Source: Megascapheus bottae (Eukaryota > Chordata > Mammalia > Rodentia > Geomyidae). From it: 64,000 nucleotides of DNA. Numbering within the stretch: position 1 is the stretch's first letter; each line of letters starts with the position of its first letter. A model generated the notes under the pieces. It searched no databases and was not told where the DNA came from. It saw only the letters and a list, made by a program, of their open reading frames with translations. The stretch is from the NCBI GenBank assembly GCA_024803745.1, contig JANJXV010000129.1:310001-374000 (forward strand), in the 5' to 3' direction. Below, one piece after another: positions 1 through 60,937 of this stretch. Made by a program: the position numbers and the translations under genes.

Positions 1-1759
1 CAATGGAGGTGTGTGAAATCTTAGAATGGAGGTTTGTGAAGTCAAAAATGGAGGTATGTGAAGTCATAGAATGGAGGTGTGTGAAGTCATATAATGGATT
101 TTTATGAAATAAGAATGAAGGTGTGTGAAGTCATAGAATGGAGGTGTGTGACGTCACAGAATGGAGTTATGTGAAGTCATAGAATGGAGCTGTGTGAAGT
201 CAGAATGGAGGTGTGTGAAGTCACAGAATGGAGGTGTGTCAACTCAGAATGGAGGTGTGTGAAGTCAAGAATGGATGTGTGTGAAGTCATAGAATGGAGG
301 TGTGTGAAGTCATAGAATGGAGGTGTGTGAAGTCAGAATGGAGGTGTGTGAAGTCACAGAATTGAGGTGTGTGAACACAGAATGCAGGTGTGTGAATCAC
401 AGAATGGAGGTGTGTGAAGTCATAGAATGGATGTTTGTGAAGTAAGAATGAAGGTGTGTGAAGTCATAGAATAGAGGTGTGTGAAGTCAAAGAATGGAGG
501 TGTGTGAAGTCACAGAATGGAGGTGTGTGAAGTCACACAATGGAGGTGTGTGAAGTCTCGAATGGAGGTGTGCGGTCATAGAAGGGAGGTGGGTGAAGTC
601 ATAGAAAGGAGGTGTGGGAAGTCATAGAATGGAGGAGTGTGAAGTCATACAGTGGAGGTGACTGAAGACACAGATTCGAGGTCTGTGAAGTCATAGAATG
701 GAGGTGTGTAAAGTCAAAATGGAGGTGTGTGAAGTCATAGAATGGAGATTTGTGAATTCATAGAATGGAGGTGTGTGACGTCACAATTGAAGTGTGTGAA
801 GTCATAAAATGGAGGTGTGTGAAGTCACAGAATGGAGGTGTGTGAACTCAGAATGGAGGTGTGTGAAGTCATAGATGGAGGTGTGTGAAGTCATAGTATG
901 GAGGTGTGTGAAATCATAGAATGGATTTTTGTGAAGTCACACAATGGAGCTGTGTGAAGTCAGAATGGAGGTGTGTGAAGTCATAGAATGGAGGTGTGTG
1001 AAGTCAGAATGGTGGTATGTGAAATCATAGAATCAAGGTGTGTGAAGTCACAATGGAGGTGTGTGAAGTCATAGAATGGAGGTGTGGAAATCATAGAATG
1101 GAGTTTTGTGAAGTCACACAATGGAGCTCTGTGAAGTCAGAATGGAGGTGTGTGAAGTCACAGAATGAAGGTGTGTGAATCACAGAATGGAGGTATGTGA
1201 ACTCAGAATGAAGGTGGGTGAAGTCACAGAATGGAGGTGTGTGAAGTCATAGAATGGAGGTGTGTGAAGTCACAGAATGGAGGTGTGTGAATTCATAGAA
1301 TGGAGGTGTGTGAAGTCATAGAATGGAGGTGTGTGAAGTCATAGAATGGAGTTGTGTGAATTCATAGAATGGAGGTGTGTGAAGTCACAGAATGGAGGTT
1401 TGTGTACTCCAAATGGAGGTGTTCGAAGTCAAAGAATGGAGGTGTGTGAAGTCATAGAATGGAAGTGTGTGAAGTCATAGAATGGAGGTGTGTGATGTCA
1501 GAATGGACATGTGTGAAGTCACAGAATTGAGGTGTGTGAACCCAGAATGGAGGTGTGTGAAGTCACAGAATGGAGGTGTGTGAAGTCAAAATGGAGGTGT
1601 GTGAACTCATAGAATGGAGGTGTGTGAACTCATAGAATTGAGGTGTGTGAAGTCATGGAATTGAGGTGTTTGAAGTCATGGAATGGAGGTGTGTGAAGTC
1701 CAAGAATGGAGGTGTGTGAAGTCAAAGAATGAAGGTGTGTGAACTCACAGAATGGAGGT

Positions 1760-2077
1760 TGCCGGGGCCAACCGGCGGCAAACCAGGGTTCGCAGATTGG
1801 GGTTCCTGAAATCGGGGGCAAGGACTAGCAAGAAAGAGAATAGAGACAGACACAGCGGGTCCGGGATGTCCGCAGTCCAGGTAAAGACTGCCGAGACTGC
1901 CTGTTTATTTTCCACTCCCCCTTCTTCCCTCCTCCTGACCCAGGAACCTCCAGGTGTTACATTCATATGGTAATTCTCAGGTCATTTACATAGAATAGGG
2001 CCAGAAAGCAATAAGACAATAAAGCCATCGTCTGATGCAAGCCAAGGTACAGATTGATTCCACTCTGGCTCACAACA
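1760..2077 (-). mobile_element. ERV2/ERVK-like solo LTR inside satellite (copy 1)
   Basis: A 318-bp non-satellite block begins TG and ends CA and is flanked on both sides by GGAGGT (1,754-1,759 and 2,078-2,083), which fits the 6-bp target duplication of ERVK-class elements. Read on the minus strand it starts TGTTGTGAGCC and ends GGCCCCGGCA. An AATAAA lies at 1,904-1,909 (complement) and could be the polyadenylation signal or a TATA-like box. No gag, pol or env and no primer-binding site lie beside it, so it is a solo LTR. Orientation and family are inferred from the termini and the AATAAA; a database match could change the family name. Confidence 0.75.
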
Positions 2078-5000
2078 GGAGGTGTGTGAAGTCACAGAAT
2101 TGAAGTGTGTGAAGTCAAAATGGAGGTGTGTGAAGTCACAGAATGGAGGTCTGTGAAGACACAGAATTGAGGTGTGTGAAGTCAGAATGGAGGTGTGTGA
2201 AGTCAGAATGGAGGTGTGTGAAGTCAGAGAATGTAAGTGTGTGAAGTCATAGAATGGAGGTGTGTGAAAACATAGAATGGAGGTGTGTGAAGTCAGAATG
2301 GAGGTGTGTGAAGTCACAGAATTGAGGTGTGTGAATTCACAGAATAGAGGTGTGTGAAGTCAGAATGCAGGTGTGAAGTCACAGACGGGAGGTGTGTGAA
2401 GTCACAGAATGGATGTTTGTGAAGTAAGAATGAAGGTGTTTGAAATCACAGAATGGAGGTGTGTGACCTCACAGAATGGAGGTGTGTGAAGTTATAGAAT
2501 GGAGGTTTGTGAAGTCATAGAATTGAGGTGTGTGAAGTCATACAATGAAGGTGTGTGAAGTCAGAATGGAGGTGTGTGAAGTCACAGAATGGAGGTGTGT
2601 GAACTCAGAATGGAGGTGTGTGAAGTCAAAGATGGAGGTGTGTGAAGACATAATATGGAGGTGTGTGGAATCATAAAATGGAGTTTTGTGCAGTCACAGA
2701 ATGGAGCTGTGTGAAGTCAGAATGGAGTTGTGTGAACTCATAGAATGGAGGTGTGTGAAGTCACAATGGAGGTGTGTGAAATCTTAGAATGGAGGTGTGT
2801 GAAGTCAAAAAATGGAGGTGTGTGAAGTCATAGAATGGAGGTGTGTGAAGTCATAGAATGGACTTTTGTGAAATAAGAATGAAGGTGTGTGAAGTCATAC
2901 AATGGAGGTGTGTGAAGTCACAGAATGGAGTTGTGTGAAGTCATAGAATGGAGCTGTGTGAAGTCAGACTGGAGGTGTGTGAAGTCACAGAATGGAGGTG
3001 TGTCAACTCAGAATGGAGGTGTGTGAAGTCACAGAATGGATATGTGTGAAGTCATAGAATGGAGGTGTGTGAAGTCATAGAATGGAAGTGTGTGAAATAA
3101 TAGAATGGAGGTGTGGGAAGTCACAGAATTGAGGTGTGTGAAGTCAGAATGGAGGTGTGTGAAGTCAGAATGGAGGTGAGTGAAGTCATACAATGGAGAT
3201 GTGTGAAGTCATAGAATGGAGGTCTGTGAACTCAGAATGGAGGTTTGTGAAGTCATAGAATGGAGGTGTGTGAACTCAGAATGGAGGTGTGTGAAGTTAC
3301 AGAATGGAGGTGTGTGAAGTCATAGAATGGAGGTTTGTGAAATCACAGAATGGAGGTGTGTGAATTCATAGAATGGAGGTGTGAAGTCATAGGATCCAGG
3401 TGTGTGAAGTCACAGAATGGAGGTGTGTGAAGTCACAGAATGGAGGTGTGTGAAGTCACAGAATGTAGGTGTGTGAACACAGAATGTAGGTGTGTGAAGC
3501 CACAGAAAGGAGGTGTGTGAAGTCATAGAATGGAAGTGTGTGAAGCCATAGAAAGGAGGTGTGTGAACTCAGTATGGAGGTGTGTGAAGTCACAGAATGG
3601 AGTTTTGTGAAGTCATAGAATGGAGGTGTGTGTAGTCAGAGAATCGATGTTTCTAAAGTAAGTATGAAGGTGTGTGAAGTCAAAGAATGGAGGTGTGTGA
3701 AGTCATAGAAGGGACGTATGTGAAGTCACAGAATGGAGGTGCGTGAAGTCAGAATGGAGGTGTGAAGTCATAGATTGAGGTTGGGTGAAGTCATAGAAAG
3801 GAGGTGTGGGAAGTCATAGAATGGAGGAGTGTGAAGTCATTGAGTGGAGGTGAGTGAAGTCACAGATTCGAGGTCTGTGAAGTCATATAATGTAGGTGTG
3901 TGAAGTCAGAATGCAGATGTGTGAAGTCATAGAATGGAGATGTGTGAACTCATAGAATGGAGGTGTGTGACGTCGTAATGGAAGTGTGTGAAGTCACAGA
4001 ATGGAGGTGTGTGAAGTCATACAATGGAGGTGTGCAAAGTCAGAATGGATGTGTGTGAATTCACAGAATGGAGGTGTGTGAACTCAGAACGGAGTTGTGT
4101 GAAGTCATAGATGGAGGTGTGTGAAGTCATAGTATGGAGGTGTGTCAAATCATAGAATGGAGTTTTGTGAAGTCACAGAAGGGAGCTGTGTGAAGTCAGA
4201 AAGCAGGTGTGTGAAGTCATAGAATGGAGTTGTGTGAAGTCAGAATGGAGGTGTGTGAAATTATAGAATTGAGGTGTGTGAAGTCACAAAATGGAGGTGT
4301 GTGAATTCATAGAATGGAGGTGTATGAAATCATAAAATGGAAGTGTTTGAAGTCACAGAATGGAGGTGTGTGAAGTCTTAGAATGGAGGTGTGTGAAGTC
4401 ACAGAATGGAGGTGTGTGAATTCATAGAATGGAGGTGTGTGAAATCATAAAATGGAAGTGTTTGAAGTCACAGAATGGAGGTGTGTGAAGTCAGAATGGA
4501 GGTGTGTGAAGTCATAGAATTAAGGTGTGTGAAGTCACATTGGAGGTGTGTGAACTCATAGAATGGAGGTGTGTGAAATCACAGTGGAGGTGTGTGAAGT
4601 CACAGAATGGAGGTGTGTGAAGTCATAGAAAGGAGGTGTGTGAAAACATAGAAGGGAGGTGTGTGAAGTCAGAATGGAGGTGTGTGCAGTCACAGAATTG
4701 AGGTGTGTGAATTCACAGAATAGAGGTGTGTGAAGTCAGAATGCAGGTGTGAAGTCACAGAGGGGAGGTGTGGGAAGTCACAGAATGGATGTTTGTGAAG
4801 TAAGAATGAAGTTGTTTGAAATCATAGAATGGAGGTGTGTGACGTAACAGAATGGAGGAGTGTGAAGTTATAGAATGGAGGTGTGTGAAGTCATAGAATT
4901 GAGGTGTGTGAAGTCATACAATGAAGGTGTGTGAAGTCACAGAATGGAGGTGTGTGAACTCAGAATGGAGGTGTGTGATGTCATAGATGGAGGTGTGTTC

Positions 5001-5250
5001 ACACATAGTATGGAGGTGTGTGAAGTCATAGAATGCATTTTTGTGAAATAAGAATGAAGGTGTGTGAAGTCATAGAATGGAGGTGTGTGACGTCACAGAA
5101 TGGAGTTGTGTGAAGTCAGAATGGAGTTGTGTGAACTCATAGAATGGAGGTGTGTGAAGTCACAATGGAGGTGTGTGAAATCTTAGAATGGAGGTGTGTG
5201 AAGTCAAAAATGGAGGTGTGTGAAGTCATAGAATGGAGGTGTGTGAAGTC

Positions 5251-8200
5251 ATATAATGGATTTTTATGAAATAAGAATGAAGGTGTGTGAAGTCATAGAA
5301 TGGAGGTGTGTGACGTCACAGAATGGAGTTGTGTGAAGTCATAGAATGGAGCTGTGTGAAGTCAGAATGGAGGTGTGTGAAGTCACAGAATGGAGGTGTG
5401 TCAACTCAGAATGGAGGTGTGTGAAGTCACAGAATGGATGTGTGTGAAGTCATAGAATGGAGGTGTGTGAAGTCATAGAATGGAGGTGTGTGATGTCAGA
5501 ATGGAGGTGTGTGAAGTCACAGAATTAAGGTGTGTGAACACAGAATGCAGGTGTGTGAATCACAGAATGGAGGTGTGTGAAATCATAGAATGGAGGTGTG
5601 TGAAGTCATAGAATGGATGTTTGTGAAGTAAGAATGAAGGTGTGTGAAGTCATAGAATAGAGGTGTGTGAAGTCAAAAGTGGAGGTGTGTGAAGTCACAG
5701 AATGGAGGTGTGTGAAGTCACACAATGGAGGTGTGTGAAGTCTCGAATGGAGGTGTGCGGTCATAGAAGGGAGGTTGGTGAAGTCATAGAAAGGAGGTGT
5801 GAAAGTCATAGAATGGAGGAGTGTGAAGTCATACAGTGGAGGTGACTGAAGACACAGATTCGAGGTCTGTGAAGTCATAGAATGGAGGTGTGTGAAGTCA
5901 GAATGGAGGTGTGTGAAGTCATAGAATGCAGATTTGTGAATTCATAGAATGGAGGTGTATGACGTCACAATTGAAGTGTGTGAAGTCATAAAATGGAGGT
6001 GTGTGAAGTCACAGAATGGAGGTGTGTGAACTCAGAATGGAGGTGTGTGAAGTCATAGATGGAGGTGTGTGAAGTCATAGTATGGAGGTGTGTGAAATCA
6101 TAGAATGGATTTTTGTGAAGTCACACAATGGAGCTGTGTGAAGTCAGAATGGAGGTGTGTGAAGTCATAGAATGGAGGTGTGTGAAGTCAGAATGGAGGT
6201 ATGTGAAATCATAGAATCAAGGTGTGTGAAGTCACAATGGAGGTGTGTGAAGTCATAGAATGGAGGTGTGGAAATCATAGAATGGAGTTTTGTGAAGTCA
6301 CACAATGGAGCTGTGTGAAGTCAGAATGGAGGTGTGTGAAGTCACAGAATGAAGGTGTGTGAATCACAGAATGGAGGTATGTGAACTCAGAATGAAGGTG
6401 GGTGAAGTCACAGAATGGAGGTGTGTGAAGTCATAGAATGGAGGTGTGTGAAGTCACAGAATGGAGGTGTGTGAATTCATAGAATGGAGGTGTGTGAAGT
6501 CATAGAATGGAGGTGTGTGAAGTCATAGAATGGAGGTGTGTGAATTCATAGAATGGAGGTGTGTGAAGTCACAGAATGGAGGTTTGTGTACTCCAAATGG
6601 AGGTGTTCGAAGTCAAAGAATGGAGGTGTGTGAAGTCATAGAATGGAAGTGTGTGAAGTCATAGAATGGAGGTGTGTGAAGTCAGAATGGACATGTGTGA
6701 AGTCACAGAATTGAGGTGTGTGAACCCAGAATGGAGGTGTGTGAAGTCACAGAATGGAGGTTTGTGAAGTCATACAATGAAGGTGTGTGAAGTCATAGAA
6801 TGGAGGTGTGTGAAGTCAAAATGGAGGTGTGTGAACTCATAGAATGGAGGTGTGTGAACTCATAGAATTGAGGTGTGTGAAGTCATGGAATTGAGGTGTG
6901 TGAAGTCATGGAATGGAGGTGTGTGAAGTCCAAGAATGGAGGTGTGTGAATTCAAAGAATGGAGGTGTGTGAACTCACAGAATGGAGGTTGCCGGGGCCA
7001 ACCGGCGGCAAACCAGGGTTCGCAGATTGGGGTTCCTGAAATCGGGGGCAAGGACTAGCAAGAAAGAGAAGAGACACAGACACAGCGGGTCCGGGATGTC
7101 CGCAGTCCAGGTAAAGACTGCCGAGACTGCCTGTTTATTTTCCACTCCCCCTTCTTCCCTCCTCATGACCCAGGAACCTCCAGGTGTTACATTCATATGG
7201 TAATTCTCAGGTCATTTACATAGAATAGGGCCAGAAAGCAATAAGACAATAAAGCCATCGTCTGATGCAAGCCAAGGTACAGATTGATTCTACTCTGGCT
7301 CACAACAGGAGGTGTGTGAAGTCACAGAATTGAAGTGTGTGAAGTCAAAATGGAGGTGTGTGAAGTCACAGAATGGAGGTCTGTGAAGACACAGAATTGA
7401 GGTGTGTGAAGTCAGAATGTAGGTGTGTGAAGTCAGAATGGAGGTGTGTGAAGTCAGAGAATGTAAGTGTGTGAAGTCATAGAATGGAGGTGTGTGAAAA
7501 CATAGAATGGAGGTGTGTGAAGTCAGAATGGAGGTGTGTGAAGTCACAGAATTGAGGTGTGTGAATTCACAGAATAGAGGTGTGTGAAGTCAGAATGCAG
7601 GTGTGAAGTCACAGACGGGAGGTGTGTGAAGTCACAGAATGGATGTTTGTGAAGTAAGAATGAAGGTGTTTGAAATCACAGAATGGAGGTGTGTGACCTC
7701 ACAGAATGGAGGTGTGTGAAGTTATACAATGGAGGTGTGTGAAGTCATAGAATTGAGGTGTGTGAAGTCATACAATGAAGGTGTGTGAAGTCAGAATGGA
7801 CTTGTGTGAAGTCACAGAATGGAGGTGTGTGAACTCAGAATGGAGGTGTGTGAAGTCAACGATGGAGGTGTGTGAAGACATAATATGGAGGTGTGTGGAA
7901 TCATAGAATGGAGTTTTGTGCAGTCACAGAATGGAGCTGTGTGAAGTCAGAATGGAGTTGTGTGAACTCATAGAATGGAGGTGTGTGAAGTCACAATGGA
8001 GGTGTGTGAAATCTTAGAATGGAGGTGTGTGAAGTCAAAAAATGGAGGTGTGTGAAGTCATAGAATGGAGGTGTGTGAAGTCATAGAATGGACTATTGTG
8101 AAATAAGAATGAAGGTGTGTGAAGTCATACAATGGAGGTGTGTGACGTCACAGAATGGAGTTGTGTGAAGTCATAGAATGGAGCTGTGTGAAATCAGAAT

Positions 8201-9713
8201 GGAGGTGTGTGAAGTCACAGAATGGAGGTGTGTCAACTCAGAATGGAGGTGTGTGAAGTCACAGAATGGATATGTGTGAAGTCATAGAATGGAGGTGTGT
8301 GAAGTCATAGAATGGAGGTGTGTGAAGTCAGAATGGAGGTGTGTGAAGTCAGAATGGAGGCGTGTGAAGTCACAGAATTGAGGTGTGTGAACACAGAATG
8401 CAGGTGTGTGAATCACAGAATGGAGGTGTGTGAAATCATAGAATGGAGGTGTGTGAAGTCATAGATTGGATGTTTGTGAAGTAAGAATGAAGGTGTGTGA
8501 AGTCATAGAATAGCGGTGTGTGAAGTCAAAGAATGGAGGTGTGTGAAGTCACAGAATGGAGGTGTGTGAAGTCACACAATGGAGGTGTGTGAAGTCTCGA
8601 ATGGAGGTGTGCGGTTATAGAAGGGAGGTGGGTGAAGTAATAGAAAGGAGGTGTGGGAAGTCATAGAATGGAGGAGTGTGAAGTCATACAGTGGAGGTGA
8701 CTGAAGACACAGATTCGAGGTCTGTGAAGTCATAGAATGGAGATGTGTAAAGTCAGAATGTAGGTGTGTGAAGTCATAAAATGGAGATTTGTGAATTCAT
8801 AGAATGGAGGTGTGTGACGTCACAGTTGAAGAGTGTGAAGTTATAAAATGGAGGTGTGTGAAGTCACAGAATGGAGGTGTGTGAAGTCATACAATGGAGG
8901 TGAGTGAAGTCAGAATGGAGGGGTGTGAAGTCACAGAATGGAGGTGTGTGAACTCAGAATGGAGGTGTGTGAAGTCATAGAATGGAGGTGTGTGAAGTCA
9001 GAATGGAGGTATGTGAAATCATAGAATCAAGTTGTGTGAAGTCACAATGGAGGTGTGTGAAGTCATAGAATGGAGGTGTGTGAAATCATAGAATGGAGTT
9101 TTGTGAAGTCACACAATGGAGCTGTGTGAAGTCAGAATGGAGGTGTGTGAACTCATAGAATGAAGGTGTGTGAATTCACAGAATACAGGGGTGTGAAGTC
9201 AGAATGCAGGTGTGAAGTCACAGAAGGGAGGTGTGTGAAGTCACAGAATGGATGTTTGTGAAGTAAGAATGAAGGTGTTTGAAATCACAGAATGGAGGTT
9301 TGTGACCTCACAGAATGGAGGTGTGTGAAGTTATAGAATGGAGGTGTGTGAAGTCATAGAATTGAGGTGTGTGAAGTCATACAATGAAGGTGTGTGAAGT
9401 CAGAATGGAGGTGTTCGAAGTCAAAGAATGGAGGTGTGTGAAGTCACAGAATGGAGGTTTGTGTACTCCAAATGGAGGTGTTCGAAGTCAAAGAATGGAG
9501 GTGTGTGAAGTCATAGAATGGAAGTGTGTGAACTCATAGAATGGAGGTGTGTGAAGTCAGAATGGACATGTGTGAAGTCACAGAATTGAGGTGTGTGAAC
9601 CCAGAATGGAGGTGTGTGAAGTCACAGAATGGAGGCGTGTGAAGTCAAAATGGAGGTGTGTGAACTCATAGAATTGAGCTTTGTGAACTCATAGAATTGA
9701 GGTGTGTGAAGTC
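5251..9713 (+). repeat. Higher-order module, tandem copy I (about 4.46 kb)
   Basis: The order of variant units, including the LTR, the GATTCGAGG marker units and the TTTTTATGAAATAAG unit, is repeated at 9,714-14,287. The first bases after the junction (ATATAATGGA at 5,251 and 9,714) are 4,463 bp apart. Copy I lacks about 112 bp present in copy II near 13,440. Confidence 0.85.
6990..7307 (-). mobile_element. ERV2/ERVK-like solo LTR inside satellite (copy 2)
   Basis: Same 318-bp element with the same termini and the same GGAGGT flanks as the copy at 1,760. Diagnostic differences (CTCATGACC, GATTCTACTC, GAGACACAGACAC) are shared with the copy at 11,452, so these two descend from one amplified module. 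Confidence 0.75.
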
Positions 9714-12700: not shown

Positions 12701-14287
12701 CAGAATGGAGGTGTGTGAAGTCACAGAATGGATATGTGTGAAGTCATAGAATGGAGGTGTGTGAAGTCATAGAATGGAGGTGTGTGAAGTCAGAATGGAG
12801 GTGTGTGAAGTCAGAATGGAGGCGTGTGAAGTCACAGAATTGAGGTGTGTGAACACAGAATGCAGGTGTGTGAATCACAGAATGGAGGTGTGTGAAATTA
12901 TAGAATGGAGGTGTGTGAAGTCATAGATTGGATGTTTGTGAAGTAAGAATGAAGGTGTGTGAAGTCATAGAATAGCGGTGTGTGAAGTCAAAGAATGGAG
13001 GTGTGTGAAGTCACAGAATGGAGGTGTGTGAAGTCACACAATGGAGGTGTGTGAAGTCTCGAATGGAGGTGTGCGGTTATAGAAGGGAGGTGGGTGAAGT
13101 AATAGAAAGGAGGTGTGGGAAGTCATAGAATGGAGGAGTGTGAAGTCATACAGTGGAGGTGACTGAAGACACAGATTCGAGGTCTGTGAAGTCATAGAAT
13201 GGAGATGTGTAAAGTCAGAATGTAGGTGTGTGAAGTCATAAAATGGAGATTTGTGAATTCATAGAATGGAGGTGTGTGACGTCACAATTGAAGAGTGTGA
13301 AGTCATAAAATGGAGGTGTGTGAAGTCACAGAATGGAGGTGTGTGAAGTCATACAATGGAGGTGAGTGAAGTCAGAATGGAGGGGTGTGAAGTCACAGAA
13401 TGGAGGTGTGTGAACTCAGAATGGAGGTGTGTGAAGTCATATTTGGAGGTGTGTGAAGTCATAGTATGGAGGTGTGTGAAATCATAGAATGGATTTTTGT
13501 GAAGTCACACAATGGAGCTGTGTGAAGTCAGAATGGAGGTGTGCGAAGTCATAGAATGGAGGTGTGTGAAGTCAGAATGGAGGTATGTGAAATCATAGAA
13601 TCAAGTTGTGTGAAGTCACAATGGAGGTGTGTGAAGTCATAGAATGGAGGTGTGTGAAATCATAGAATGGAGTTTTGTGAAGTCACACAATGGAGCTGTG
13701 TGAAGTCAGAATGGAGGTGTGTGAACTCATAGAATGAAGGTGTGTGAATTCACAGAATACAGGTGTGTGAAGTCAGAATGCAGGTGTGAAGTCACAGAAG
13801 GGAGGTGTGTGAAGTCACAGAATGGATGTTTGTGAAGTAAGAATGAAGGTGTTTGAAATCACAGAATGGAGGTGTGTGACCTCACAGAATGGAGGTGTGT
13901 GAAGTTATAGAATGGAGGTGTGTGAAGTCATAGAATTGAGGTGTGTGAAGTCATACAATGAAGGTGTGTGAAGTCAGAATGGAGGTGTTCGAAGTCAAAG
14001 AATGGAGGTGTGTGAAGTCACAGAATGGAGGTTTGTGTACTCCAAATGGAGGTGTTCGAAGTCAAAGAATGGAGGTGTGTGAAGTCATAGAATGGAAGTG
14101 TGTGAACTCATAGAATGGAGGTGTGTGAAGTCAGAATGGACATGTGTGAAGTCACAGAATTGAGGTGTGTGAACCCAGAATGGAGGTGTGTGAAGTCACA
14201 GAATGGAGGCGTGTGAAGTCAAAATGGAGGTGTGTGAACTCATAGAATTGAGCTGTGTGAACTCATAGAATTGAGGTGTGTGAAGTC
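9714..14287 (+). repeat. Higher-order module, tandem copy II
   Basis: Near-identical repeat of 5,251-9,713, differing by scattered single bases and by unit-sized indels. It ends where the flank changes from GAAGTCATATAATGG to GAAGTCATGGAATTG, leading into the LTR at 14,393. Confidence 0.85.
11452..11769 (-). mobile_element. ERV2/ERVK-like solo LTR inside satellite (copy 3)
   Basis: Matches the copy at 6,990 at every diagnostic site. It lies 4,462 bp downstream, which is the period of the tandem duplication of this part of the array. Confidence 0.75.
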
Positions 14288-14392
14288 ATGGAATTGAGGT
14301 GTGTGAAGTCATGGAATGGAGGTGTGTGAAGTCCAAGAATGGAGGTGTGTGAAGTCAAAGAATGAAGGTGTGTGAACTCACAGAATGGAGGT

Positions 14393-14710
14393 TGCCGGGG
14401 CCAACCGGCGGCAAACCAGGGTTCGCAGATTGGGGTTCCTGAAATCGGGGGCAAGGACTAGCAAGAAAGAGAATAGAGACAGACACAGCGGGTCCGGGAT
14501 GTCCGCAGTCCAGGTAAAGACTGCCGAGACTGCCTGTTTATTTTCCACTCCCCCTTCTTCCCTCCTCCTGACCCAGGAACCTCCAGGTGTTACATTCATA
14601 TGGTAATTCTCAGGTCATTTACATAGAATAGGGCCAGAAAGCAATAAGACAATAAAGCCATCGTCTGATGCAAGCCAAGGTACAGATTGATTCCACTCTG
14701 GCTCACAACA
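14393..14710 (-). mobile_element. ERV2/ERVK-like solo LTR inside satellite (copy 4)
   Basis: Same element; its diagnostic bases match the copy at 1,760 (AATAGAGACAG, CTCCTGACC, GATTCCACTC) rather than its neighbour at 11,452. Modules of different types are therefore interleaved. Confidence 0.75.
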
Positions 14711-17700
14711 GGAGGTGTGTGAAGTCACAGAATTGAAGTGTGTGAAGTCAAAATGGAGGTGTGTGAAGTCACAGAATGGAGGTAGGTGAAGACACAGAAT
14801 TGAGGTGTGTGAAGTCAGAATGTAGGTGTGTGAAGTCAGAATGGAGGTGTGTGAAGTCAGAGAATGTAAGTGTGTGAAGTCATAGAATGGAGGTGTGTGA
14901 AAACATAGAATGGAGGTGTGTGAAGTCAGTATGGAGGTGTGTGAAGTCACAGAATTGAGGTGTGTGAATTCACAGAATAGAGGTGTGTGAAGTCAGAATG
15001 CAGGTGTGAAGTCACAGACGGGAGGTGTGTGAAGTCACAGAATGGATGTTTGTGAAGTAAGAATGAAGGTGTTTGAAATCATAGAATGGAGGTGTGTGAC
15101 CTCACAGAATGGAGGTTTGTGAAGTTATAGAATGGAGGTGTGTGAAGTCATAGAATTGAGGTGTGTGAAGTCATACAATGAAGGTGTGTGAAGTCAGAAT
15201 GGAGGTGTGTGAAGTCACAGAATGGAGGTGTGTGAACTCAGAATGGAGGTGTGTGAAGTCAAAGAAGGACGTGTGTGAAGACATAATATGGAGGTGTGTG
15301 GAATCATAGAATGGAGTTTTGTGCAGTCACAGAATGGAGCTGTGTGAAGTCAGAATGGAGTTGTGTGAACTCATAGAATGGAGGTGTGTGAAGTCACAAT
15401 GGAGGTGTGTGAAATCTTAGAATGGAGGTGTGTGAAGTCAAAAAATGGAGGTGTGTGAAGTCATAGAATGGAGGTGTGTGAAGTCATAGAATGGACTTTT
15501 GTGAAATAAGAATGAAGGTGTGTGAAGTCATACAATGGAGGTGTGTGACGTCTCAGAATGGAGTTGTGTGAAGTCATAGAATGGAGCTGTGTGAAGTAAG
15601 AATGGAGGTGTGTGAAGTCGCAGAATGGAGGTGTGTCAACTCAGAATGGAGGTGTGTGAAGTCACAGAATGGATATGTGTGAAGTCATAGAATGGAGGTG
15701 TGTGAAGTCATAGAATGGAAGTGTGTGAAATAATAGAATGGAGGTGTGGGAAGTCACAGAATTGAGGTGTGTGAAGTCAGAATGGAGGTGTGTGAAGTCA
15801 GAATGGAGGTGAGTGAAGTCATACAATGGAGATGTGTGAAGTCATAGAATGGAGGTGTGTGAACTCAGAATGGAGGTGTGTGAAGTTACAGAATGGAGGT
15901 GTGTGAAGTCATAGAATGGAGGTTTGTGAAATCACAGAATGGAGGTGTGTGAATTCATAGAATGGAGGTGTGAAGTCATAGGATCCAGGTGTGTGAAGTC
16001 ACAGAATGGAGGTGTGTGAAGTCACAGAATGGAGGTGTGTGAAGTCACAGAATGTAGGTGTGTGAACTCAGAATGTAGGTGTGTGAAGCCACAAAAAGGA
16101 GGTGTGTGAAGTCATAGAATGGAAGTGTGTGAAGTCATAGAAAGGAGGTGTGTGAACTCAGTATGGAGGTGTGTGAAGTCATAGAATGGAGTTTTGTGAA
16201 GTCATAGAATGGAGGTGTGTGTAGTCAGAGAATGGATGTTTCTAAAGTAAGTATGAAGGTGTGTGAAGTCAAAGAATGGAGGTGTGTGAAGTCATAGAAG
16301 GGACGTATGTGAAGTCACAGAATGGAGGTGTGTGAAGTCAGAATGGAGGTGTGAAGTCATAGATTGAGGTTGGGTGAAGTCATAGAAAGGAGGTGTGGGA
16401 AGTCATAGAATGGAGGAGTGTGAAGTCATTGAGTGGAGGTGAGTGAAGTCACAGATTCGAGGTCTGTGAAGTCATAGAATGGAGGTGTGTGAAGTCAGAA
16501 TGCAGGTGTGTGAAGTCATAGAATGGAGATGTGTGAAGTCATAAAATGGAAGTGTGCAAAGTCAGAATGGATGTGTGTGAATTCACAGAATGGAGGTGTG
16601 TGAACTCAGAATGGAGTTGTGTGAAGTCATAGATGGAGGTGTGTGAAGTCATAGTATGGAGGTGTGTCAAATCATAGAATGGAGTTTTGTGAAGTCACAG
16701 AAGGGAGCTGTGTGAAGTCAGAAAGGAGGTGTGTGAAGTCATAGAATGGAGGTGTGTGAAGTCAGAATGGAGGTGTGTGAAATTATAGAATTGAGGTGTG
16801 TGAAGTCACAAAATGGAGGTGTGTGAATTCATAGAATGGAGGTGTGTGAAATCATAAAATGGAAGTGTTTGAAGTCACAGAATGGAGGTGTGTGAAGTCT
16901 TAGAATGGAGGTGTGTGAAGTCACAGAATGGAGGTGTGTGAATTCATAGAATGGAGGTGTGTGAAATCATAAAATGGAAGTGTTTGAAGTCACAGAATGG
17001 AGGTGTGTGAAGTCAGAATGGAGGTGTGTGAAGTCAGAATGGAGGTGTGTGAAGTCACAGAATGGAGGTGTGTGAAGTCATAGATGGAGGTGTGTGAAGT
17101 CAGAATTGAGGTGTGTGAAGTCAGAATGGAGGTGTGTGAAGTCACAGATGGAGGTGTGTGAAGTCATAGAATGGAGGTGTGTGAAAACATAGAATGGAGG
17201 TGTGTGAAGTCAGAATGGAGGTGTGTGCAGTCACAGAATTAAGGTGTGTGAATTCACGGAATAGAGGTGTGTGAAGTCAGAATGCAGGTGTGAAGTCACA
17301 GAGGGGAGGTGTGGGAAGTCACAGAATGGATGTTTGTGAAGTAAGAATGAAGGTGTTTGAAATCATAGAATGGAGGTGTGTGACGTAACAGAATGGAGGA
17401 GTGTGAAGTTATAGAATGGAGGTGTGTGAAGTCATAGAATTGAGGTGTGTGAAGTCATACAATGAACGTGTGTGAAGTCAGAATGGAGGTGTGTGAAGTC
17501 ACAGAATGGAGGTGTGTGAACTCAGAATGGAGGTGTGTGAAGTCATAGATGGAGGTGTGTTCACACATAGTATGGAGGTGTGTGAAGTCATAGAATGCAT
17601 TTTTGTGAAATAAGAATGAAGGTGTGTGAAGTCATAGAATGGAGGTGTGTGACGTCACAGAATGGAGTTGTGTGAAGTCAGAATGGAGTTGTGTGAACTC

Positions 17701-19207
17701 ATAGAATGGAGGTGTGTGAAGTCACAATGGAGGTGTGTGAAATCTTAGAATGGAGGTGTGTGAAGTCAAAAATGGAGGTGTGTGAAGTCATAGAATGGAG
17801 GTGTGTGAAGTCATATAATGGATTTTTATGAAATAAGAATGAAGGTGTTTGAAGTCATAGAATGGAGGTGTGTGACGTCACAGAATGGAGAGCTGTGTGA
17901 AGTCAGAATGGAGGTGTGTGAAGTCACAGAATGGAGGTGTGTCAACTCAGAATGGAGGTGTGTGAAGTCACAGAATGGATGTGTGTGAAGTCATAGAATG
18001 GAGGTGTGTGAAGTCATAGAATGGAGGTGTGTGAAGTCAGAATTGAGGTGTGTGAAGTCATAGAATTGAGGTGTGTGAACACAGAATGCAGGTGTGTGAA
18101 TCACAGAATGGAGGTGTGTGAAATCATAGAATGGAGGTGTGTGAAGTCATAGAATGGATGTTTGTGAAGTAAGAATGAAGGTGTGTGAAGTCATAGAATA
18201 GAGGTGTGTGAAGTCAAAGAATGGAGGTGTGTGAAGTCACACAATGGAGGTGTGTGAAGTCACACAATGGAGGTGTGTGAAGTCTCGAATGGAGGTGTGC
18301 GGTCATAGAAGGGAGGTGGGTGAAGTCATAGAAAGGAGGTGTGGGAAGTCATAGAATGGAGGAGTGTGAAGTCCTACAGTGGAGGTGACTGAAGACACAG
18401 ATTCGAGGTCTGTGAAGTCATAGAATGGAGGTTTGTAAAGTCAGAATGGAGGTGTGTGAAGTCATAGAATGGAGATTTGTGAATTCATAGAATGGAGGTG
18501 TGTGACGTCACAATTGAAGTGTGTGAAGTCATAAAATGGAGGTGTGTGAAGTCACAGAATGGAGGTGTGTGAACTCAGAATGGAGGTGTGTGAAGTCATA
18601 GATGGAGGTGTGTGAAGTCATAGTATGGAGGTGTGTGAAGTCAGAATGGAGGTACGTGAAATCATAGAATCAAGGTGTGTGAAGTCACAATGGAGGTGTG
18701 TGAAGTCATAGAATGGAGGTGTGGCAATCATAGAATGGAGTTTTGTGAAGTCACACAATGGAGCTGTGTGAAGTCAGAATGGAGGTGTGTGAAGTCATAG
18801 AATGGAGGTGTGTGAAGTCAGAATGGAGGTACGTGAAATCATAGAATCAAGGTGTGTGAAGTCACAATGGAGGTGTGTGAAGTCATAGAATGGAGGTGTG
18901 GCAATCATAGAATGGAGTTTTGTGAAGTCACACAATGGAGCTGTGTGAAGTCAGAATGGAGGTGTGTGAAGTCACAGAATGAAGGTGTGTGAATCACAGA
19001 ATGGAGGTATGTGAACTCAGAATGAAGGTGGGTGAAGTCACAGAATGGAGGTGTGTGAAGTCATAGAATGGAGGTGTGTGAAGTCACAGAATGGAGGTGT
19101 GTGAATTCATAGAATGGAGGTGTGTGAAGTCATAGAATGGAGGTGTGTGAAGTCATAGAATGGAGGTGTGTGAATTCATAGAATGGAGGTGTGTGAAGTC
19201 ACAGAAT
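14711..19207 (+). repeat. Higher-order module of the GGATCC type, copy I (4,497 bp)
   Basis: Starts right after the LTR at 14,710 and is repeated from 19,208 with an offset of 4,497 bp. The marker AGGATCCAGG (about 15,978) recurs at about 20,475. A related module after the first LTR carries the same marker near 3,391. This copy holds an extra 177-bp internal duplication (18,652 onward). Confidence 0.85.
18652..19005 (+). repeat. 177-bp direct duplication inside one module
   Basis: The block containing GGTACGTGAAATCATAG and the GTGTGGCAATCATAG unit starts at 18,652 and again, displaced by 177 bp, at 18,828-18,829. The sister module at 23,280-23,460 has a single copy, so this expansion is young and module-specific. 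Confidence 0.8.
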
Positions 19208-22200
19208 GGAGGTGTGTGAAGTCACAGAATTGAAGTGTGTGAAGTCAAAATGGAGGTGTGTGAAGTCACAGAATGGAGGTAGGTGAAGACACAGAATTGA
19301 GGTGTGTGAAGTCAGAATGGAGGTGTGTGAAGTCAGAATGGAGGTGTGTGAAGTCAGAGAATGTAAGTGTGTGAAGTCATAGAATGGAGGTGTGTGAAAA
19401 CATAGAATGGAGGTGTGTGAAGTCAGAATGGAGGTGTGTGAAGTCACAGAATTGAGGTGTGTGAATTCACAGAATAGAGGTGTGTGAAGTCAGAATGCAG
19501 GTGTGAAGTCACAGACGGGAGGTGTGTGAAGTCACAGAATGGATGTTTGTGAAGTAAGAATGAAGGTGTTTGAAATCATAGAATGGAGGTGTGTGACCTC
19601 ACAGAATGGAGGTTTGTGAAGTTATAGAATGGAGGTGTGTGAAGTCATAGAATTGAGGTGTGTGAAGTCATACAATGAAGGTGTGTGAAGTCAGAATGGA
19701 GGTGTGTGAAGTCACAGAATGGAGGTGTGTGAACTCAGAATGGAGGTGTGTGAAGTCAAAGAAGGACGTGTGTGAAGACATAATATGGAGGTGTGTGGAA
19801 TCATAGAATGGAGTTTTGTGCAGTCACAGAATGGAGCTGTGTGAAGTCAGAATGGAGTTGTGTGAACTCATAGAATGGAGGTGTGTGAAGTCACAATGGA
19901 GGTGTGTGAAATCTTAGAATGGAGGTGTGTGAAGTCAAAAAATGGAGGTGTGTGAAGTCATAGAATGGAGGTGTGTGAAGTCATAGAATGGACTTTTGTG
20001 AAATAAGAATGAAGGTGTGTGAAGTCATACAATGGAGGTGTGTGACGTCTCAGAATGCAGTTGTGTGAAGTCATAGAATGGAGCTGTGTGAAGTAAGAAT
20101 GGAGGTGTGTGAAGTCACAGAATGGAGGTGTGTCAACTCAGAATGGAGGTGTGTGAAGTCACAGAATGGATATGTGTGAAGTCATAGAATGGAGGTGTGT
20201 GAAGTCATAGAATGGAAGTGTGTGAAATAATAGAATGGAGGTGTGGGAAGTCACAGAATTGAGGTGTGTGAAGTCAGAATGGAGGTGTGTGAAGTCAGAA
20301 TGGAGGTGAGTGAAGTCATACAATGGAGATGTGTGAAGTCATAGAATGGAGGTGTGTGAACTCAGAATGGAGGTGTGTGAAGTTACAGAATGGAGGTGTG
20401 TGAAGTCATAGAATGGAGGTTTGTGATATCACAGAATGGAGGTGTGTGAATTCATAGAATGGAGGTGTGAAGTCATAGGATCCAGGTGTGTGAAGTCACA
20501 GAATGGAGGTGTGTGAAGTCACAGAATGGAGGTGTGTGAAGTCACAGAATGTAGGTGTGTGAACTCAGAATGTAGGTGTGTGAAGCCACAAAAAGGAGGT
20601 GTGTGAAGTCATAGAATGGAAGTGTGTGAAGTCATAGAAAGGAGGTGTGTGAACTCAGTATGGAGGTGTGTGAAGTCATAGAATGGAGTTTTGTGAAGTC
20701 ATAGAATGGAGGTGTGTGTAGTCAGAGAATGGATGTTTCTAAAGTAAGTATGAAGGTGTGTGAAGTCAAAGAATGGAGGTGTGTGAAGTCATAGAAGGGA
20801 CGTATGTGAAGTCACAGAATGGAGGTGTGTGAAGTCAGAATGGAGGTGTGAAGTCATAGATTGAGGTTGGGTGAAGTCATAGAAAGGAGGTGTGGGAAGT
20901 CATAGAATGGAGGAGTGTGAAGTCATTGAGTGGAGGTGAGTGAAGTCACAGATTCGAGGTCTGTGAAGTCATAGAATGGAGGTGTGTGAAGTCAGAATGC
21001 AGGTGTGTGAAGTCATAGAATGGAGATGTGTGAACTCATAGAATGGAGGTGTGTGACGTCGTAATGGAAGTGTGTGAAGTCACAGAATGGAGGTGTGTGA
21101 AGTCATACAATGGAAGTGTGCAAAGTCAGAATGGATGTGTGTGAATTCACAGAATGGAGGTGTGTGAACTCAGAATGGAGTTGTGTGAAGTCATAGATGG
21201 AGGTGTGTGAAGTCATAGTATGGAGGTGTGTCAAATCATAGAATGGAGTTTTGTGAAGTCACAGAAGGGAGCTGTGTGAAGTCAGAAAGGAGGTGTGTGA
21301 AGTCATAGAATGGAGGTGTGTGAAGTCAGAATGGAGGTGTGTGAAATTATAGAATTGAGGTGTGTGAAGTCACAAAATGGAGGTGTGTGAATTCATAGAA
21401 TGGAGGTGTGTGAAATCATAAAATGGAAGTGTTTGAAGTCACAGAATGGAGGTGTGTGAAGTCTTAGAATGGAGGTGTGTGAAGTCACAGAATGGAGGTG
21501 TGTGAATTCATAGAATGGAGGTGTGTGAAATCATAAAATGGAAGTGTTTGAAGTCACAGAATGGAGGTGTGTGAAGTCAGAATGGAGGTGTGTGAAGTCA
21601 CAGAATGGAGGTGTGTGAAGTCATAGATGGAGGTGTGTGAAGTCAGAATTGAGGTGTGTGAAGTCAGAATGGAGGTGTGTGAAGTCACAGATGGAGGTGT
21701 GTGAAGTCATAGAATGGAGGTGTGTGAAAACATAGAATGGAGGTGTGTGAAGTCAGAATGGAGGTGTGTGCAGTCACAGAATTAAGGTGTGTGAATTCAC
21801 AGAATAGAGGTGTGTGAAGTCAGAATGCAGGTGTGAAGTCACAGAGGGGAGGTGTGGGAAGTCACAGAATGGATGTTTGTGAAGTAAGAATGAAGGTGTT
21901 TGAAATCATAGAATGGAGGTGTGTGACGTAACAGAATGGAGGAGTGTGAAGTTATAGAATGGAGGTGTGTGAAGTCATAGAATTGAGGTGTGTGAAGTCA
22001 TACAATGAACGTGTGTGAAGTCAGAATGGAGGTGTGTGAAGTCACAGAATGGAGGTGTGTGAACTCAGAATGGAGGTGTGTGAAGTCATAGATGGAGGTG
22101 TGTTCACACATAGTATGGAGGTGTGTGAAGTCATAGAATGCATTTTTGTGAAATAAGAATGAAGGTGTGTGAAGTCATAGAATGGAGGTGTGTGACGTCA

Positions 22201-23662
22201 CAGAATGGAGTTGTGTGAAGTCAGAATGGAGTTGTGTGAACTCATAGAATGGAGGTGTGTGAAGTCACAATGGAGGTGTGTGAAATCTTAGAATGGAGGT
22301 GTGTGAAGTCAAAAATGGAGGTGTGTGAAGTCATAGAATGGAGGTGTGTGAAGTCATATAATGGATTTTTATGAAATAAGAATGAAGGTGTTTGAAGTCA
22401 TAGAATGGAGGTGTGTGACGTCACAGAATGGAGAGCTGTGTGAAGTCAGAATGGAGGTGTGTGAAGTCACAGAATGGAGGTGTGTCAACTCAGAATGGAG
22501 GTGTGTGAAGTCACAGAATGGATGTGTGTGAAGTCATAGAATGGAGGTGTGTGAAGTCATAGAATGGAGGTGTGTGAAGTCAGAATTGAGGTGTGTGAAG
22601 TCATAGAATTGAGGTGTGTGAACACAGAATGCAGGTGTGTGAATCACAGAATGGAGGTGTGTGAAATCATAGAATGGAGGTGTGTGAAGTCATAGAATGG
22701 ATGTTTGTGAAGTAAGAATGAAGGTGTGTGAAGTCATAGAATAGAGGTGTGTGAAGTCAAAGAATGGAGGTGTGTGAAGTCACAGAATGGAGGTGTGTGA
22801 AGTCACACAATGGAGGTGTGTGAAGTCTCGAATGGAGGTGTGCGGTCATAGAAGGGAGGTGGGTGAAGTCATAGAAAGGAGGTGTGGGAAGTCATAGAAT
22901 GGAGGAGTGTGAAGTCCTACAGTGGAGGTGACTGAAGACACAGATTCGAGGTCTGTGAAGTCATAGAATGGAGGTTTGTAAAGTCAGAATGGAGGTGTGT
23001 GAAGTCATAGAATGGAGATTTGTGAATTCATAGAATGGAGGTGTGTGACGTCACAATTGAAGTGTGTGAAGTCATAAAATGGAGGTGTGTGAAGTCACAG
23101 AATGGAGGTGTGTGAACTCAGAATGGAGGTGTGTGAAGTCATAGATGGAGGTGTGTGAAGTCATAGTATGGAGGTGTGTGAAATCATAGAATGGATTTTT
23201 GTGAAGTCACAAATGGAGCTGTGTGAAGTCAGAATGGAGGTGTGTGAAGTCATAGAATGGAGGTGTGTGAAGTCAGAATGGAGGTACGTGAAATCATAGA
23301 ATCAAGGTGTGTGAAGTCACAATGGAGGTGTGTGAAGTCATAGAATGGAGGTGTGGCAATCATAGAATGGAGTTTTGTGAAGTCACACAATGGAGCTGTG
23401 TGAAGTCAGAATGGAGGTGTGTGAAGTCACAGAATGAAGGTGTGTGAATCACAGAATGGAGGTATGTGAACTCAGAATGAAGGTGGGTGAAGTCACAGAA
23501 TGGAGGTGTGTGAAGTCATAGAATGGAGGTGTGTGAAGTCACAGAATGGAGGTGTGTGAATTCATAGAATGGAGGTGTGTGAAGTCATAGAATGGAGGTG
23601 TGTGAAGTCATAGAATGGAGGTGTGTGAATTCATAGAATGGAGGTGTGTGAAGTCACAGAAT
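19208..23662 (+). repeat. Higher-order module of the GGATCC type, copy II, LTR lost at its left edge
   Basis: It begins with the post-LTR sequence (GGAGGTGTGTGAAGTCACAG then AATTGAAG), but no LTR precedes it. The left neighbour is the unit that lies 730 bp before the equivalent point at 24,392. An in-register deletion between satellite units therefore removed the LTR and about 410 bp of pre-LTR satellite. Confidence 0.8.
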
Positions 23663-24074
23663 GGAGGTTTGTGTACTCCAAATGGAGGTGTTCGAAGTCA
23701 AAGAATGGAGGTGTGTGAAGTCATAGAATGGAAGTGTGTGAAGTCATAGAATGGAGGTGTGTGAAGTCAGAATGGACATGTGTGAAGTCACAGAATTGAG
23801 GTGTGTGAACCCAGAATGGAGGTGTGTGAAGTCACAGAATGGAGGTTTGTGAAGTCATACAATGAAGGTGTGTGGAGTCATAGAATGGAGGTGTGTGAAG
23901 TCAAAATGGAGGTGTGTGAACTCATAGAATGGAGGTGTGTGAACTCATAGAATTGAGGTGTGTGAAGTCATGGAATTGAGGTGTGTGAAGTCATGGAATG
24001 GAGGTGTGTGAAGTCCAAGAATGGAGGTGTGTGAAGTCAAAGAATGGAGGTGTGTGAACTCACAGAATGGAGGT

Positions 24075-24392
24075 TGCCGGGGCCAACCGGCGGCAAACCA
24101 GGGTTCGCAGATTGGGGTTCCTGAAATCGGGGGCAAGGACTAGCAAGAAAGAGAAGAGAGACAGACACAGCGGGTCCGGGATGTCCGCAGTCCAGGTAAA
24201 GACTGCCGAGACTGCCTGTTTATTTTCCACTCCCCCTTCTTCCCTCCTCCTGACCCAGGAACCTCCAGGTGTTACATTCATATGGTAATTCTCAGGTCAT
24301 TTACATAGAATAGGGCCAGAAAGCAATAAGACAATAAAGCCATCGTCTGATGCAAGCCAAGGTACAGATTGATTCCACTCTGGCTCACAACA
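24075..24392 (-). mobile_element. ERV2/ERVK-like solo LTR inside satellite (copy 5)
   Basis: Same element with GGAGGT on both sides. It is a third sequence type (GAAGAGAGACAG but CTCCTGACC). It is the last LTR before the array ends 1.2 kb further on. Confidence 0.75.
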
Positions 24393-25579
24393 GGAGGTGT
24401 GTGAAGTCACAGAATTGAAGTGTGTGAAGTCAAAATGGAGGTGTGTGAAGTCACAGAATGGAGGTCTGTGAAGACACAGAATTGAGGTGTGTGAAGTCAG
24501 AATGGAGGTGTGTGAAGTCAGAATGGAGGTGTGTGAAGTCAGAGAATGTAAGTGTGTGAAGTCATAGAATGGAGGTGTGTGAAAACATAGAATGGAGGTG
24601 TGTGAAGTCACAGAATGGAGGTGTGTGAACTCAGAATGGAGGTGTGTGAAGTCATATTTGGAGGTGTGTGAAGTCATAGTATGGAGGTGTATGAAATCAT
24701 AGAATGGATTTTTGTGAAGTCACACAATGGAGCTGTGTGAAGTCAGAATGGAGGTGTGTGAAGTCATAGAATGGAGGTGTGTGAAGTCAGAATGGAGGTA
24801 TGTGAAATCATAGAATCAAGGTGTGTGAAGTCACAATGGAGGTGTGTGAAGTCATAGAATGGAGGTGTGTGAAATCATAGAATGGAGTTTTGTGAAGTCA
24901 CACAATGGAGCTGTGTGAAGTCAGAATGGAGGTGTGTGAAGTCATAGAATGAAGGTGTGTGAATCACAGAATGGAGGTATGTGAACTCAGAATGGAGGTG
25001 GGTGAAGTCACAGAATGGAGGTGTGTGAAGTCACAGAATGGAGGTGTGTGAAGTCACAGAATGGAGGTGTGTGAATTCATAGAATGGAGGTGTGTGAAGT
25101 CATAGAATGGAGGTGTGTGAAGTCATGGAATGGAGGTGTGTGAATTCATAGAATGGAGGTGTGTGAAGTCACAGAATGGAGGTTTGTGTACTCCAAATGG
25201 AGGTGTTCGAAGTCAAAGAATGGAGGTGTGTGAAGTCATAGAATGGAAGTGTGTGAACTCATAGAATGGAGGTGTGAAGTCAGAATTTACATGTGTGAAG
25301 TCACAGAATTGAGGTGTTTGAACCCAGAATGGAGGTGTGTGAAGTCACAGAATGGAGGTTTGTGAAGTCATACAATGGAGGTGTGTGAAGTCATAGAATG
25401 GAGGTGTGTGAAGTCATAGAATGGAGGTGTGTGAAGTCATAGAATGGAGGTGTGTGAAGTCAAAATGGAGGTGTGTGAACTCATAGAATGGAGGTGTGTG
25501 AACTCATAGAATTGAGGTGTGTGAAGTCATGGAATGGAGGTGTGTGAAGTCCAAGAATGGAGGTGTGTGAAGTCAAAGA

Positions 25580-60683: not shown

Positions 60684-60937
60684 AAATCTTGGGCTCTACT
60701 AGCAGAGATTTGCAATAGAGCAAAATCTTGATACATAAGGACATATAATGTGAAGTTGATTAAAAGGACCTCCAGAATAGTGAAACAAAAGCCATATAAT
60801 GAATGATTGTTGTCCTTAATGTACTATGTTGTCTCGCATCTCCTTTGCTGTCCCTTATAATCTCATATTGGTAGAGTATCTCACTTTGTTATCGGATATA
60901 TTGAATTTATTTGTATTTGGATATTTCAAATTTGATA

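What the first reader, a model, noticed from the sequence alone, without database searches (positions are those of the whole stretch)
1754..24398. One LTR insertion captured and co-amplified inside a minisatellite higher-order repeat
Five 318-bp LTR copies (1,760; 6,990; 11,452; 14,393; 24,075) share the same termini, the same GGAGGT on both sides and the same neighbouring units (CAAGAATGGAGG, then AACTCACAGAATGG before; CACAGAATTGAAG after). Five independent insertions at one base are not credible, so one insertion became part of the repeating module. The 6-bp flank fits an ERVK-type target duplication, although every unit contains GGAGGT, so the flank alone is weaker proof. A retroviral promoter spread as part of a satellite unit is uncommon and gives a datable tag for satellite turnover.
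Basis: partly seen in the sequence, partly recalled or inferred. Interest (0 to 1): 0.8.

Follow-up and report, generated by a model that had tools for sequence, protein, structure and literature searches.

The report
Viral fragment copied within satellite DNA
A leftover end of an ancient retrovirus landed once inside a 23-base repeat of this mammal's genome and was then copied along with the repeat more than a thousand times, leaving unfilled, filled, shortened and lost versions that let its history be read.

Summary
Confirmed, and the reading is largely right. Five 318-bp LTR copies sit at one base of a 23-bp satellite's higher-order repeat, with flanks mostly 96-100% alike for 1 kb or more (copy 5: 0.2 kb on its right), against 83-86% between other stretches. 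In the window's own genome the LTR end joined to GGAGGT occurs 1,302 times exactly; 20 of 20 that I read are LTRs in the same satellite context. All 55 full-length copies from nine contigs share the insertion unit. Of 92 LTR-less right flanks I read 16; three are intact empty sites with one GGAGGT, so a 6-bp target duplication is shown. A 79% relative outside satellite is followed by a primer-binding site: the element is an LTR, read on the minus strand. The module at 19,208 lost its LTR, which explains the long gap between copies 4 and 5; a 111-bp remnant appears to repeat elsewhere; the array ends on the LTR's left edge, to the base, at seven duplicated loci, unexplained. Such capture is a known kind of event.

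The parts
2..25611 (+). 23-bp minisatellite array (unit AATGGAGGTGTGTGAAGTCATAG), organised in HORs of about 4.5-5.2 kb; it continues to the left of the window
   Evidence: upstream LTR copy at C129:303044
1760..2077 (-). LTR copy 1 (solo LTR, 318 bp); GGAGGT flanks 1754-1759 and 2078-2083
6990..7307 (-). LTR copy 2; GGAGGT flanks 6984-6989 and 7308-7313
11452..11769 (-). LTR copy 3; GGAGGT flanks 11446-11451 and 11770-11775
14393..14710 (-). LTR copy 4 (identical to copy 1); GGAGGT flanks 14387-14392 and 14711-14716
24075..24392 (-). LTR copy 5; GGAGGT flanks 24069-24074 and 24393-24398; right flank shared with the others for only about 220 bp
5209..13449 (+). two successive HOR copies, offset 4,462-4,464 bp, about 98.5-99% identical, each containing one LTR
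14711..23682 (+). two successive HOR copies (14711-19207 and 19208-23682), joined directly without an LTR
19208..19213 (+). LTR-loss junction: the right flank begins at the GGAGGT of the right target copy, while the left sequence is the one lying about 393 bp upstream of the LTR in other copies
   Evidence: nested among LTR-bearing copies, sister to LTR4 with local support 0.82
25605..25610 (+). array end: this GGAGGT is the unit that precedes the LTR in the other copies; the satellite stops at the base where the LTR would begin
   Evidence: same junction at seven loci including this one
25611..27181 (+). 5'-truncated L1 abutting the array, 94% identical to 59521-61074

Best explanation
A class II (ERVK-like) endogenous retrovirus inserted once into the GGAGGT of one unit of a 23-bp satellite, duplicating 6 bp, and collapsed to a solo LTR. 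The LTR-bearing module then multiplied by unequal exchange and by segmental duplication of the block that holds it, giving more than 1,300 copies on many contigs. Later exchanges between units removed the LTR from single modules (19,208 here) and elsewhere cut it to a 111-bp remnant that appears to be repeated in turn. Shown: LTR nature, one shared insertion site, target duplication, co-amplification, spread to many contigs, one secondary loss. Inferred: solo formation before amplification, unequal exchange as the engine, that the satellite was already in HORs at the time, and the absence of any function.
For: Shared flanks and termini. 55 of 55 full-length LTRs on nine contigs in the same unit: left 18-mer exact in 47 and with one change in 8, right 20-mer exact in 44 and a close variant in 11. 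1,302 exact LTR-GGAGGT junctions, control 0; 20 of 20 read are in the same context. Seven older copies, 95-96% alike, in the same context on seven further contigs. Intact empty sites L120, L121, L122. Dispersed relative with primer-binding site. The LTR-less module at 19,208 is nested among LTR-bearing ones. Sequence beyond the array 99.2-99.4% alike on three other contigs.
Against: No Dfam or Repbase match and no pol gene could be tested, so 'ERVK' rests on the 6-bp duplication and on the primer-binding site of one relative only 79% alike. The right target copy begins with A, T or C instead of G in some branches. Only 111 bases of each empty site, overlapping the 51-base pattern, were read, and 13 of the 16 LTR-less sites read are not intact empty sites. 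An empty site could in principle be restored by deletion between the two GGAGGT copies. The tree of LTRs rooted on L056 resolves little: its two basal groups have supports 73 and 71. Exchange between copies blurs LTR divergence.
Confidence: 0.93

Rival explanations
1. Independent insertions of the same LTR family at a preferred target base in the satellite.
For: Most units offer GGAGGT (658 in the window's array), so a motif-preferring integrase would have many equal targets.
Against: All 55 copies lie in one unit out of roughly 212 in the reference HOR, and in the window the flanks beyond that unit are shared for about 1 kb or more. Two of the five LTRs are identical. The 20 further ones read are in the same context.
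Confidence: 0.01
2. The LTR arose as filler at a tandem-duplication breakpoint (aberrant integration joining two sites): the array end at 25,610 and the junction at 19,208 would be the two original parent ends.
For: The LTR's left edge equals the array end to the base, and its right edge equals the start of the 19,208 junction.
Against: Intact empty sites with both flanks contiguous exist. The 19,208 junction is nested among LTR-bearing copies. The array end carries AAC, while the older LTR-bearing branches and the empty sites have AAG.
Confidence: 0.04
3. The LTR-less copies on C1293, C1585 and C1694 are not pre-insertion sites but were restored by deletion between the two GGAGGT copies; the insertion then preceded all HOR amplification.
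For: A loss by exchange is documented at 19,208.
Against: The known loss removed about 17 units as well. Exact restoration on several contigs needs a 6-bp exchange with no trace. The three sites differ from filled copies at several positions, as older relatives would; no rooted test was made.
Confidence: 0.1
4. The 318 bp is not an LTR but a piece of unique DNA captured by the satellite.
For: No library match could be run here.
Against: TG...CA ends and 6-bp duplication; AATAAA at position 169 on the minus strand; a 300-bp relative outside satellite has what I recall as a lysine-tRNA type primer-binding site 2 bp after its end on the same strand.
Confidence: 0.02

Closest known systems
Rye pSc200/pSc250 subtelomeric arrays with co-amplified transposable elements (PMC4857426; abstract and outline seen)
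   Same: Tandem repeats and neighbouring transposable elements, with solo LTRs enriched, are said to expand together.
   Different: There many elements lie next to arrays; here one insertion inside one HOR unit is followed through empty, filled, truncated and lost states, in a mammal.
RPCS satellite of Ctenomys rodents (passage in PMC3648361; table rows in PMC9659126 and PMC6947457)
   Same: A rodent satellite family that carries retroviral LTR sequence.
   Different: In RPCS the 348-bp monomer itself resembles an LTR; here the monomer is an unrelated 23-bp unit and the LTR is one insert per module.
walbRep satellite of the red-necked wallaby (passage in PMC10815390)
   Same: A mammalian satellite built from an endogenous retrovirus, including its LTR.
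   Different: walbRep consists of LTR plus internal region; here a solo LTR rides in a foreign satellite.
TR-MTA tandem repeats of mouse (passages in PMC3218096)
   Same: LTR-retrotransposon sequence as part of a tandem unit in a rodent.
   Different: The unit is built of the element; it is not a single insertion in a foreign minisatellite.
ERVs carried by segmental duplication in young mouse KRAB-zinc-finger gene clusters (passages in PMC12575710)
   Same: ERV copies multiply by duplication of the surrounding block rather than by new insertion; this window also has a C2H2 zinc-finger reading frame 11 kb from the array.
   Different: The word satellite does not occur in its main text.

Membership tests
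LTR of an endogenous retrovirus | TG...CA termini | tested here: met
   5 of 5 in the window
LTR of an endogenous retrovirus | target-site duplication against an empty site | tested here: met
   one GGAGGT in empty sites L120-L122, two in filled sites
LTR of an endogenous retrovirus | polyadenylation signal in the sense strand | tested here: met
   AATAAA at position 169 of the minus-strand LTR
LTR of an endogenous retrovirus | primer-binding site directly after the U5 end in a non-solo relative | tested here: met
   TGGTGCCTGAACAGGGAC 2 bp after the end of the 79% relative L056; one relative only; tRNA-Lys assignment recalled
ERVK (class II) | 6-bp target duplication | tested here: met
   some branches have A, T or C as first base of the right copy
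ERVK (class II) | class II pol phylogeny or curated library match | not testable with these tools
   solo LTR, no internal region read; no Dfam or Repbase here; a viral-contig scan with one U5 word found nothing
Solo LTR | single LTR, no internal region, same duplication on both sides | tested here: met
   satellite on both sides of 55 of 55
Higher-order satellite repeat | multi-unit blocks far more alike than neighbouring units | tested here: met
   98.5-99% between HOR copies against about 83-86% between stretches out of register
LTR-derived satellite of RPCS type | the monomer itself is LTR sequence | tested here: not met
   the LTR matches only the five insert copies in the window, not the 23-bp unit; the 111-bp remnant on C241 may be nearer to this state

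The most novel reading that the evidence does not exclude
The captured LTR changes how the satellite evolves: its two edges are where the satellite's homology ends, and exchanges tend to resolve there. They thereby set module boundaries, the array's end and the losses, and LTR-bearing modules have largely replaced the older empty ones. In the window 2 of roughly 8 to 15 rearrangement junctions (my tally by eye) fall on an LTR edge unit, and the array end does so to the base at seven duplicated loci.
Probability: 0.12. Interest if true: 0.75.

Novelty: new variant of a known kind. Interest (0 to 1): 0.55.

Why it matters
Satellite turnover is usually inferred from copies that all look alike. 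Here one marked insertion splits a satellite family into before and after: pre-insertion modules, filled modules with a shared birth point, truncated modules that seem to be repeated anew, and a module that lost the mark. That lets the direction, routes (within an array, between contigs by segmental duplication) and breakpoints of satellite exchange be read in one mammalian genome. It also shows that a retroviral LTR present more than a thousand times can come from one insertion, so counts of LTRs are not counts of insertions.

Tried and rejected
Five independent insertions: rejected by shared long flanks and identical LTRs. LTR as duplication filler, with the array end and the 19,208 junction as parents: entertained, then rejected when the tree, the AAC base and the empty sites spoke against it. 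L1 retrotransposition of a composite satellite-L1 element as the way of spread: rejected, because in three loci homology runs 4.5-5.1 kb past the junction, that is about 2.9-3.5 kb past the L1's end, at 99.2-99.4% and up to the limit of what was fetched. A paper search for the 10-mer ACACAGCGGG (recalled as the Dipodomys HS-beta unit, present in all five LTRs) gave no satellite paper. A viral-contig scan with a U5 word found nothing. Rfam and tRNA scans of the window found nothing. One search printed nothing (unsuitable BLAST settings; rerun). The flank patterns were too loose to be of use and were replaced. The pattern with up to 3 mismatches for empty sites matched 6,047 places, many of them other satellite units (among the first 100 listed), so it gives no count of empty sites. 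The counts 1,302 (21-mer) and 92 (51-mer) come from patterns of different length and must not be read as a ratio; the matching LTR-bearing 51-mer did not complete. A genome search for dispersed relatives of L056 did not complete.

Full report
OBSERVATION. The window's first 25.6 kb is a 23-bp minisatellite. Copies 1 and 4 are identical, copy 5 differs from them at one site, copies 2 and 3 at four. Outside the LTR the flanks remain 96-100% alike in most 150-bp bins for 1.5 kb to the left (seven bins at 88-95%, six of them in pairs with copy 4), and for 1.05 kb to the right in copies 1-4; copy 5 keeps only about 220 bp on the right. Long alignments of the same array out of HOR register run at about 83-86%. 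So the LTR and its surroundings were multiplied together.

HIGHER-ORDER STRUCTURE. Diagonal scans show HOR copies offset by 4,462-4,464, 4,497 and 4,543-4,564 bp. With 19,208-24,074 as reference (4,867 bp, LTR position at its ends), the array reads as whole, shortened and shuffled HOR copies. The 9,682-bp distance between LTR4 and LTR5 holds two HOR copies with no LTR between them: at 19,208 the right flank starts at the GGAGGT of the right target copy (99.0-99.5% over 400 bp to copies 1-4), but the left sequence is the one found about 393 bp upstream of the LTR elsewhere. About 17 units plus the LTR are absent.

THE LTR-LESS MODULE IS A LOSS. On the right flank, copy 4 and the 19,208 module share six changes that the diverged half-HOR relatives lack, while copies 1-3 group apart. 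In a tree of 56 right flanks (52 behind LTRs from nine contigs, being those of the 55 with 420 bp available; the 19,208 module; three half-HOR relatives) it is sister to copy 4 with local support 0.82, deep among LTR-bearing copies, the farthest of which differ from it by 13.7%. So this module lost the LTR.

BEYOND THE WINDOW. The window is part of contig C129 of a 2.84-Gb, 2,786-contig genome. The LTR's right end followed by GGAGGT occurs 1,302 times exactly (554 forward, 748 reverse, control 0 and 0). The 100 places listed run in contig order and begin at C52, so apparently none lies in C1-C51. I picked 20 of those 100 listed places: 20 of 20 hold this LTR with the same satellite unit on the right; 18 were fetched far enough to show the left side, with the same adjoining unit apart from point variants, and two were cut by my short request. 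Earlier loci, which were found by similarity to LTR1, give 55 distinct full-length LTRs on nine contigs: mean pairwise difference 1.05%, maximum 5.3%, 21 haplotypes; left 18-mer exact in 47 of 55 and one change in the other 8; right 20-mer exact in 44 of 55 and a close variant in the other 11. Overlapping loci were merged before this count. In those loci and the window, 250-bp flank matches of at least 93% gave, with overlaps not merged: right flank 51 behind an LTR, one LTR-less at 99.2% (19,208) and nine others at 93-94%; left flank 44 before an LTR, six array ends and one other at 93.1%.

OLDER BRANCHES AND REMNANTS. The LTR end followed by another base than G occurs 116 times. I fetched 18 of these places: seven hold older satellite-borne LTRs (95.0-96.2% alike), one holds a relative outside satellite (L056), nine show no LTR match, and one (L070, C241) was too short to tell. 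Of 18 stretches fetched (17 of them at such places), nine hold full or near-full LTRs in the same satellite unit, four hold a shortened LTR (L071 on C241, L085 on C387 and L086 on C65 with 111 bp left in satellite; L079 on C272 with 127 bp and other DNA on its left), four hold 74-79-bp matches at about 85% outside satellite, and one, not at a hit, has none. The 111-bp form shares one left junction on three contigs, and C241 has 23 listed hits of the pattern between 779 and 978 kb, so a remnant seems to have become a module of its own; only one of those C241 hits was read to that length.

EMPTY SITES. The right flank directly preceded by a satellite unit instead of the LTR occurs 92 times exactly. 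I read the left side of 16 of the 92, on 12 contigs. Three (L120 on C1293, L121 on C1585, L122 on C1694) have, in the 92 bp to the left, the unit string that precedes the LTR: against 6,786 other GGAGGT sites in the held loci (overlaps not merged), the four best shown are one LTR whose first bases are mutated and array ends, which carry the same left flank, and the best LTR left flanks score as high. They have one GGAGGT and no LTR. L123 is ambiguous; the other 12 belong to other junction types. Filled against empty gives a 6-bp duplication, GGAGGT. Only 111 bases of each were read, overlapping the 51-base pattern.

IS IT AN LTR. The 300-bp relative L056 on C9 lies outside satellite DNA, is 79% identical over positions 33-318, and on the minus-strand sense is followed after 2 bp by TGGTGCCTGAACAGGGAC, which I recall as a lysine-tRNA type primer-binding site. 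AATAAA lies at position 169 on the same strand; no TATAA was found; CpG observed/expected is 0.48 in the LTR, 0.13 in a stretch of the satellite and 0.16 in the rest of the window. So the element is an LTR read on the window's minus strand; ERVK is the likely class, but pol and libraries could not be tested.

SPREAD. The satellite-L1 junction that ends the array (25,610/25,611) occurs at seven loci, the window's included, five exact and two with one mismatch. In three of them (C230, C417, C157) homology continues for 4.5-5.1 kb beyond the junction, to the end of what was fetched, at 99.2-99.4%; the other four, one being the window's own, were read for 1.5 kb only, at 99.3-100%. The arrays were therefore carried between contigs inside segmental duplications. 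A C2H2 zinc-finger frame lies at 36,723-37,619. In mouse, young zinc-finger clusters carry ERV copies by segmental duplication (PMC12575710, passages).

THE ODD EDGE. The array ends on the unit that precedes the LTR elsewhere, and the L1 begins at the base where the LTR would begin. All seven loci have AAC in that unit, where the seven older LTR copies and the three empty sites have AAG, so this end is most likely a post-insertion breakpoint. Together with the 19,208 junction, 2 of roughly 8 to 15 rearrangement junctions in the window (my tally by eye) fall on an LTR edge unit. With about 212 units per HOR and two edges, about 0.15 to 0.3 would be expected, so two or more would happen by chance in roughly 1-3% of cases; this is my own estimate after seeing the data. 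I leave it unexplained.

DATING. LTR copies differ by 0 to 6.6% in the sets compared. I give no age: no rate was measured, and exchange blurs the record. LTR1 and LTR4 are identical, although at the divergence of their right flanks (15 of 950) five differences would be expected. A tree rooted on L056 resolves little (supports 71 and 73 at the base).

NOVELTY. Satellites with retroviral sequence are known: RPCS of Ctenomys (PMC3648361, PMC9659126, PMC6947457; passages), walbRep of wallaby (PMC10815390, passage), mouse TR-MTA (PMC3218096, passages), and rye arrays with co-amplified elements (PMC4857426, abstract and outline). My ten searches listed no report that I recognised as this satellite or this capture, but they cover only the held library and I saw only the listings and the passages named. 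This is a new variant of a known kind.

Noticed in passing
window 25605-25611 and six other loci (L031, L033-L037): The satellite array stops at the exact base where the LTR begins in other copies, and an L1 follows directly; unexplained.
   Followed up: partly
window 1850-1859 and the same place in the other four LTRs: The LTR contains ACACAGCGGG, which I recall as the unit of the kangaroo-rat HS-beta satellite; a paper search for the 10-mer gave no satellite paper.
   Followed up: partly
L071 (C241), L085 (C387), L086 (C65): A 111-bp piece of the LTR with one shared satellite junction, apparently repeated many times on C241: a second, truncated module.
   Followed up: partly
window 36723-37619: C2H2 zinc-finger reading frame near an array that lies in segmental duplications; possibly a zinc-finger gene cluster.
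   Followed up: no
L050-L052 (C105:390362-414712): Seven LTR copies spaced 4,058 bp apart (one spacing 4,060), a very regular HOR.
   Followed up: no
L082, L083, L087, L088: 74-79-bp stretches about 85% like the LTR's right end, outside satellite, on four contigs with the same neighbour sequence: probably another repeat family related to the LTR.
   Followed up: no
whole genome: A satellite pattern with up to 3 mismatches matched 6,047 places, so the 23-bp satellite itself is very abundant in this genome.
   Followed up: no
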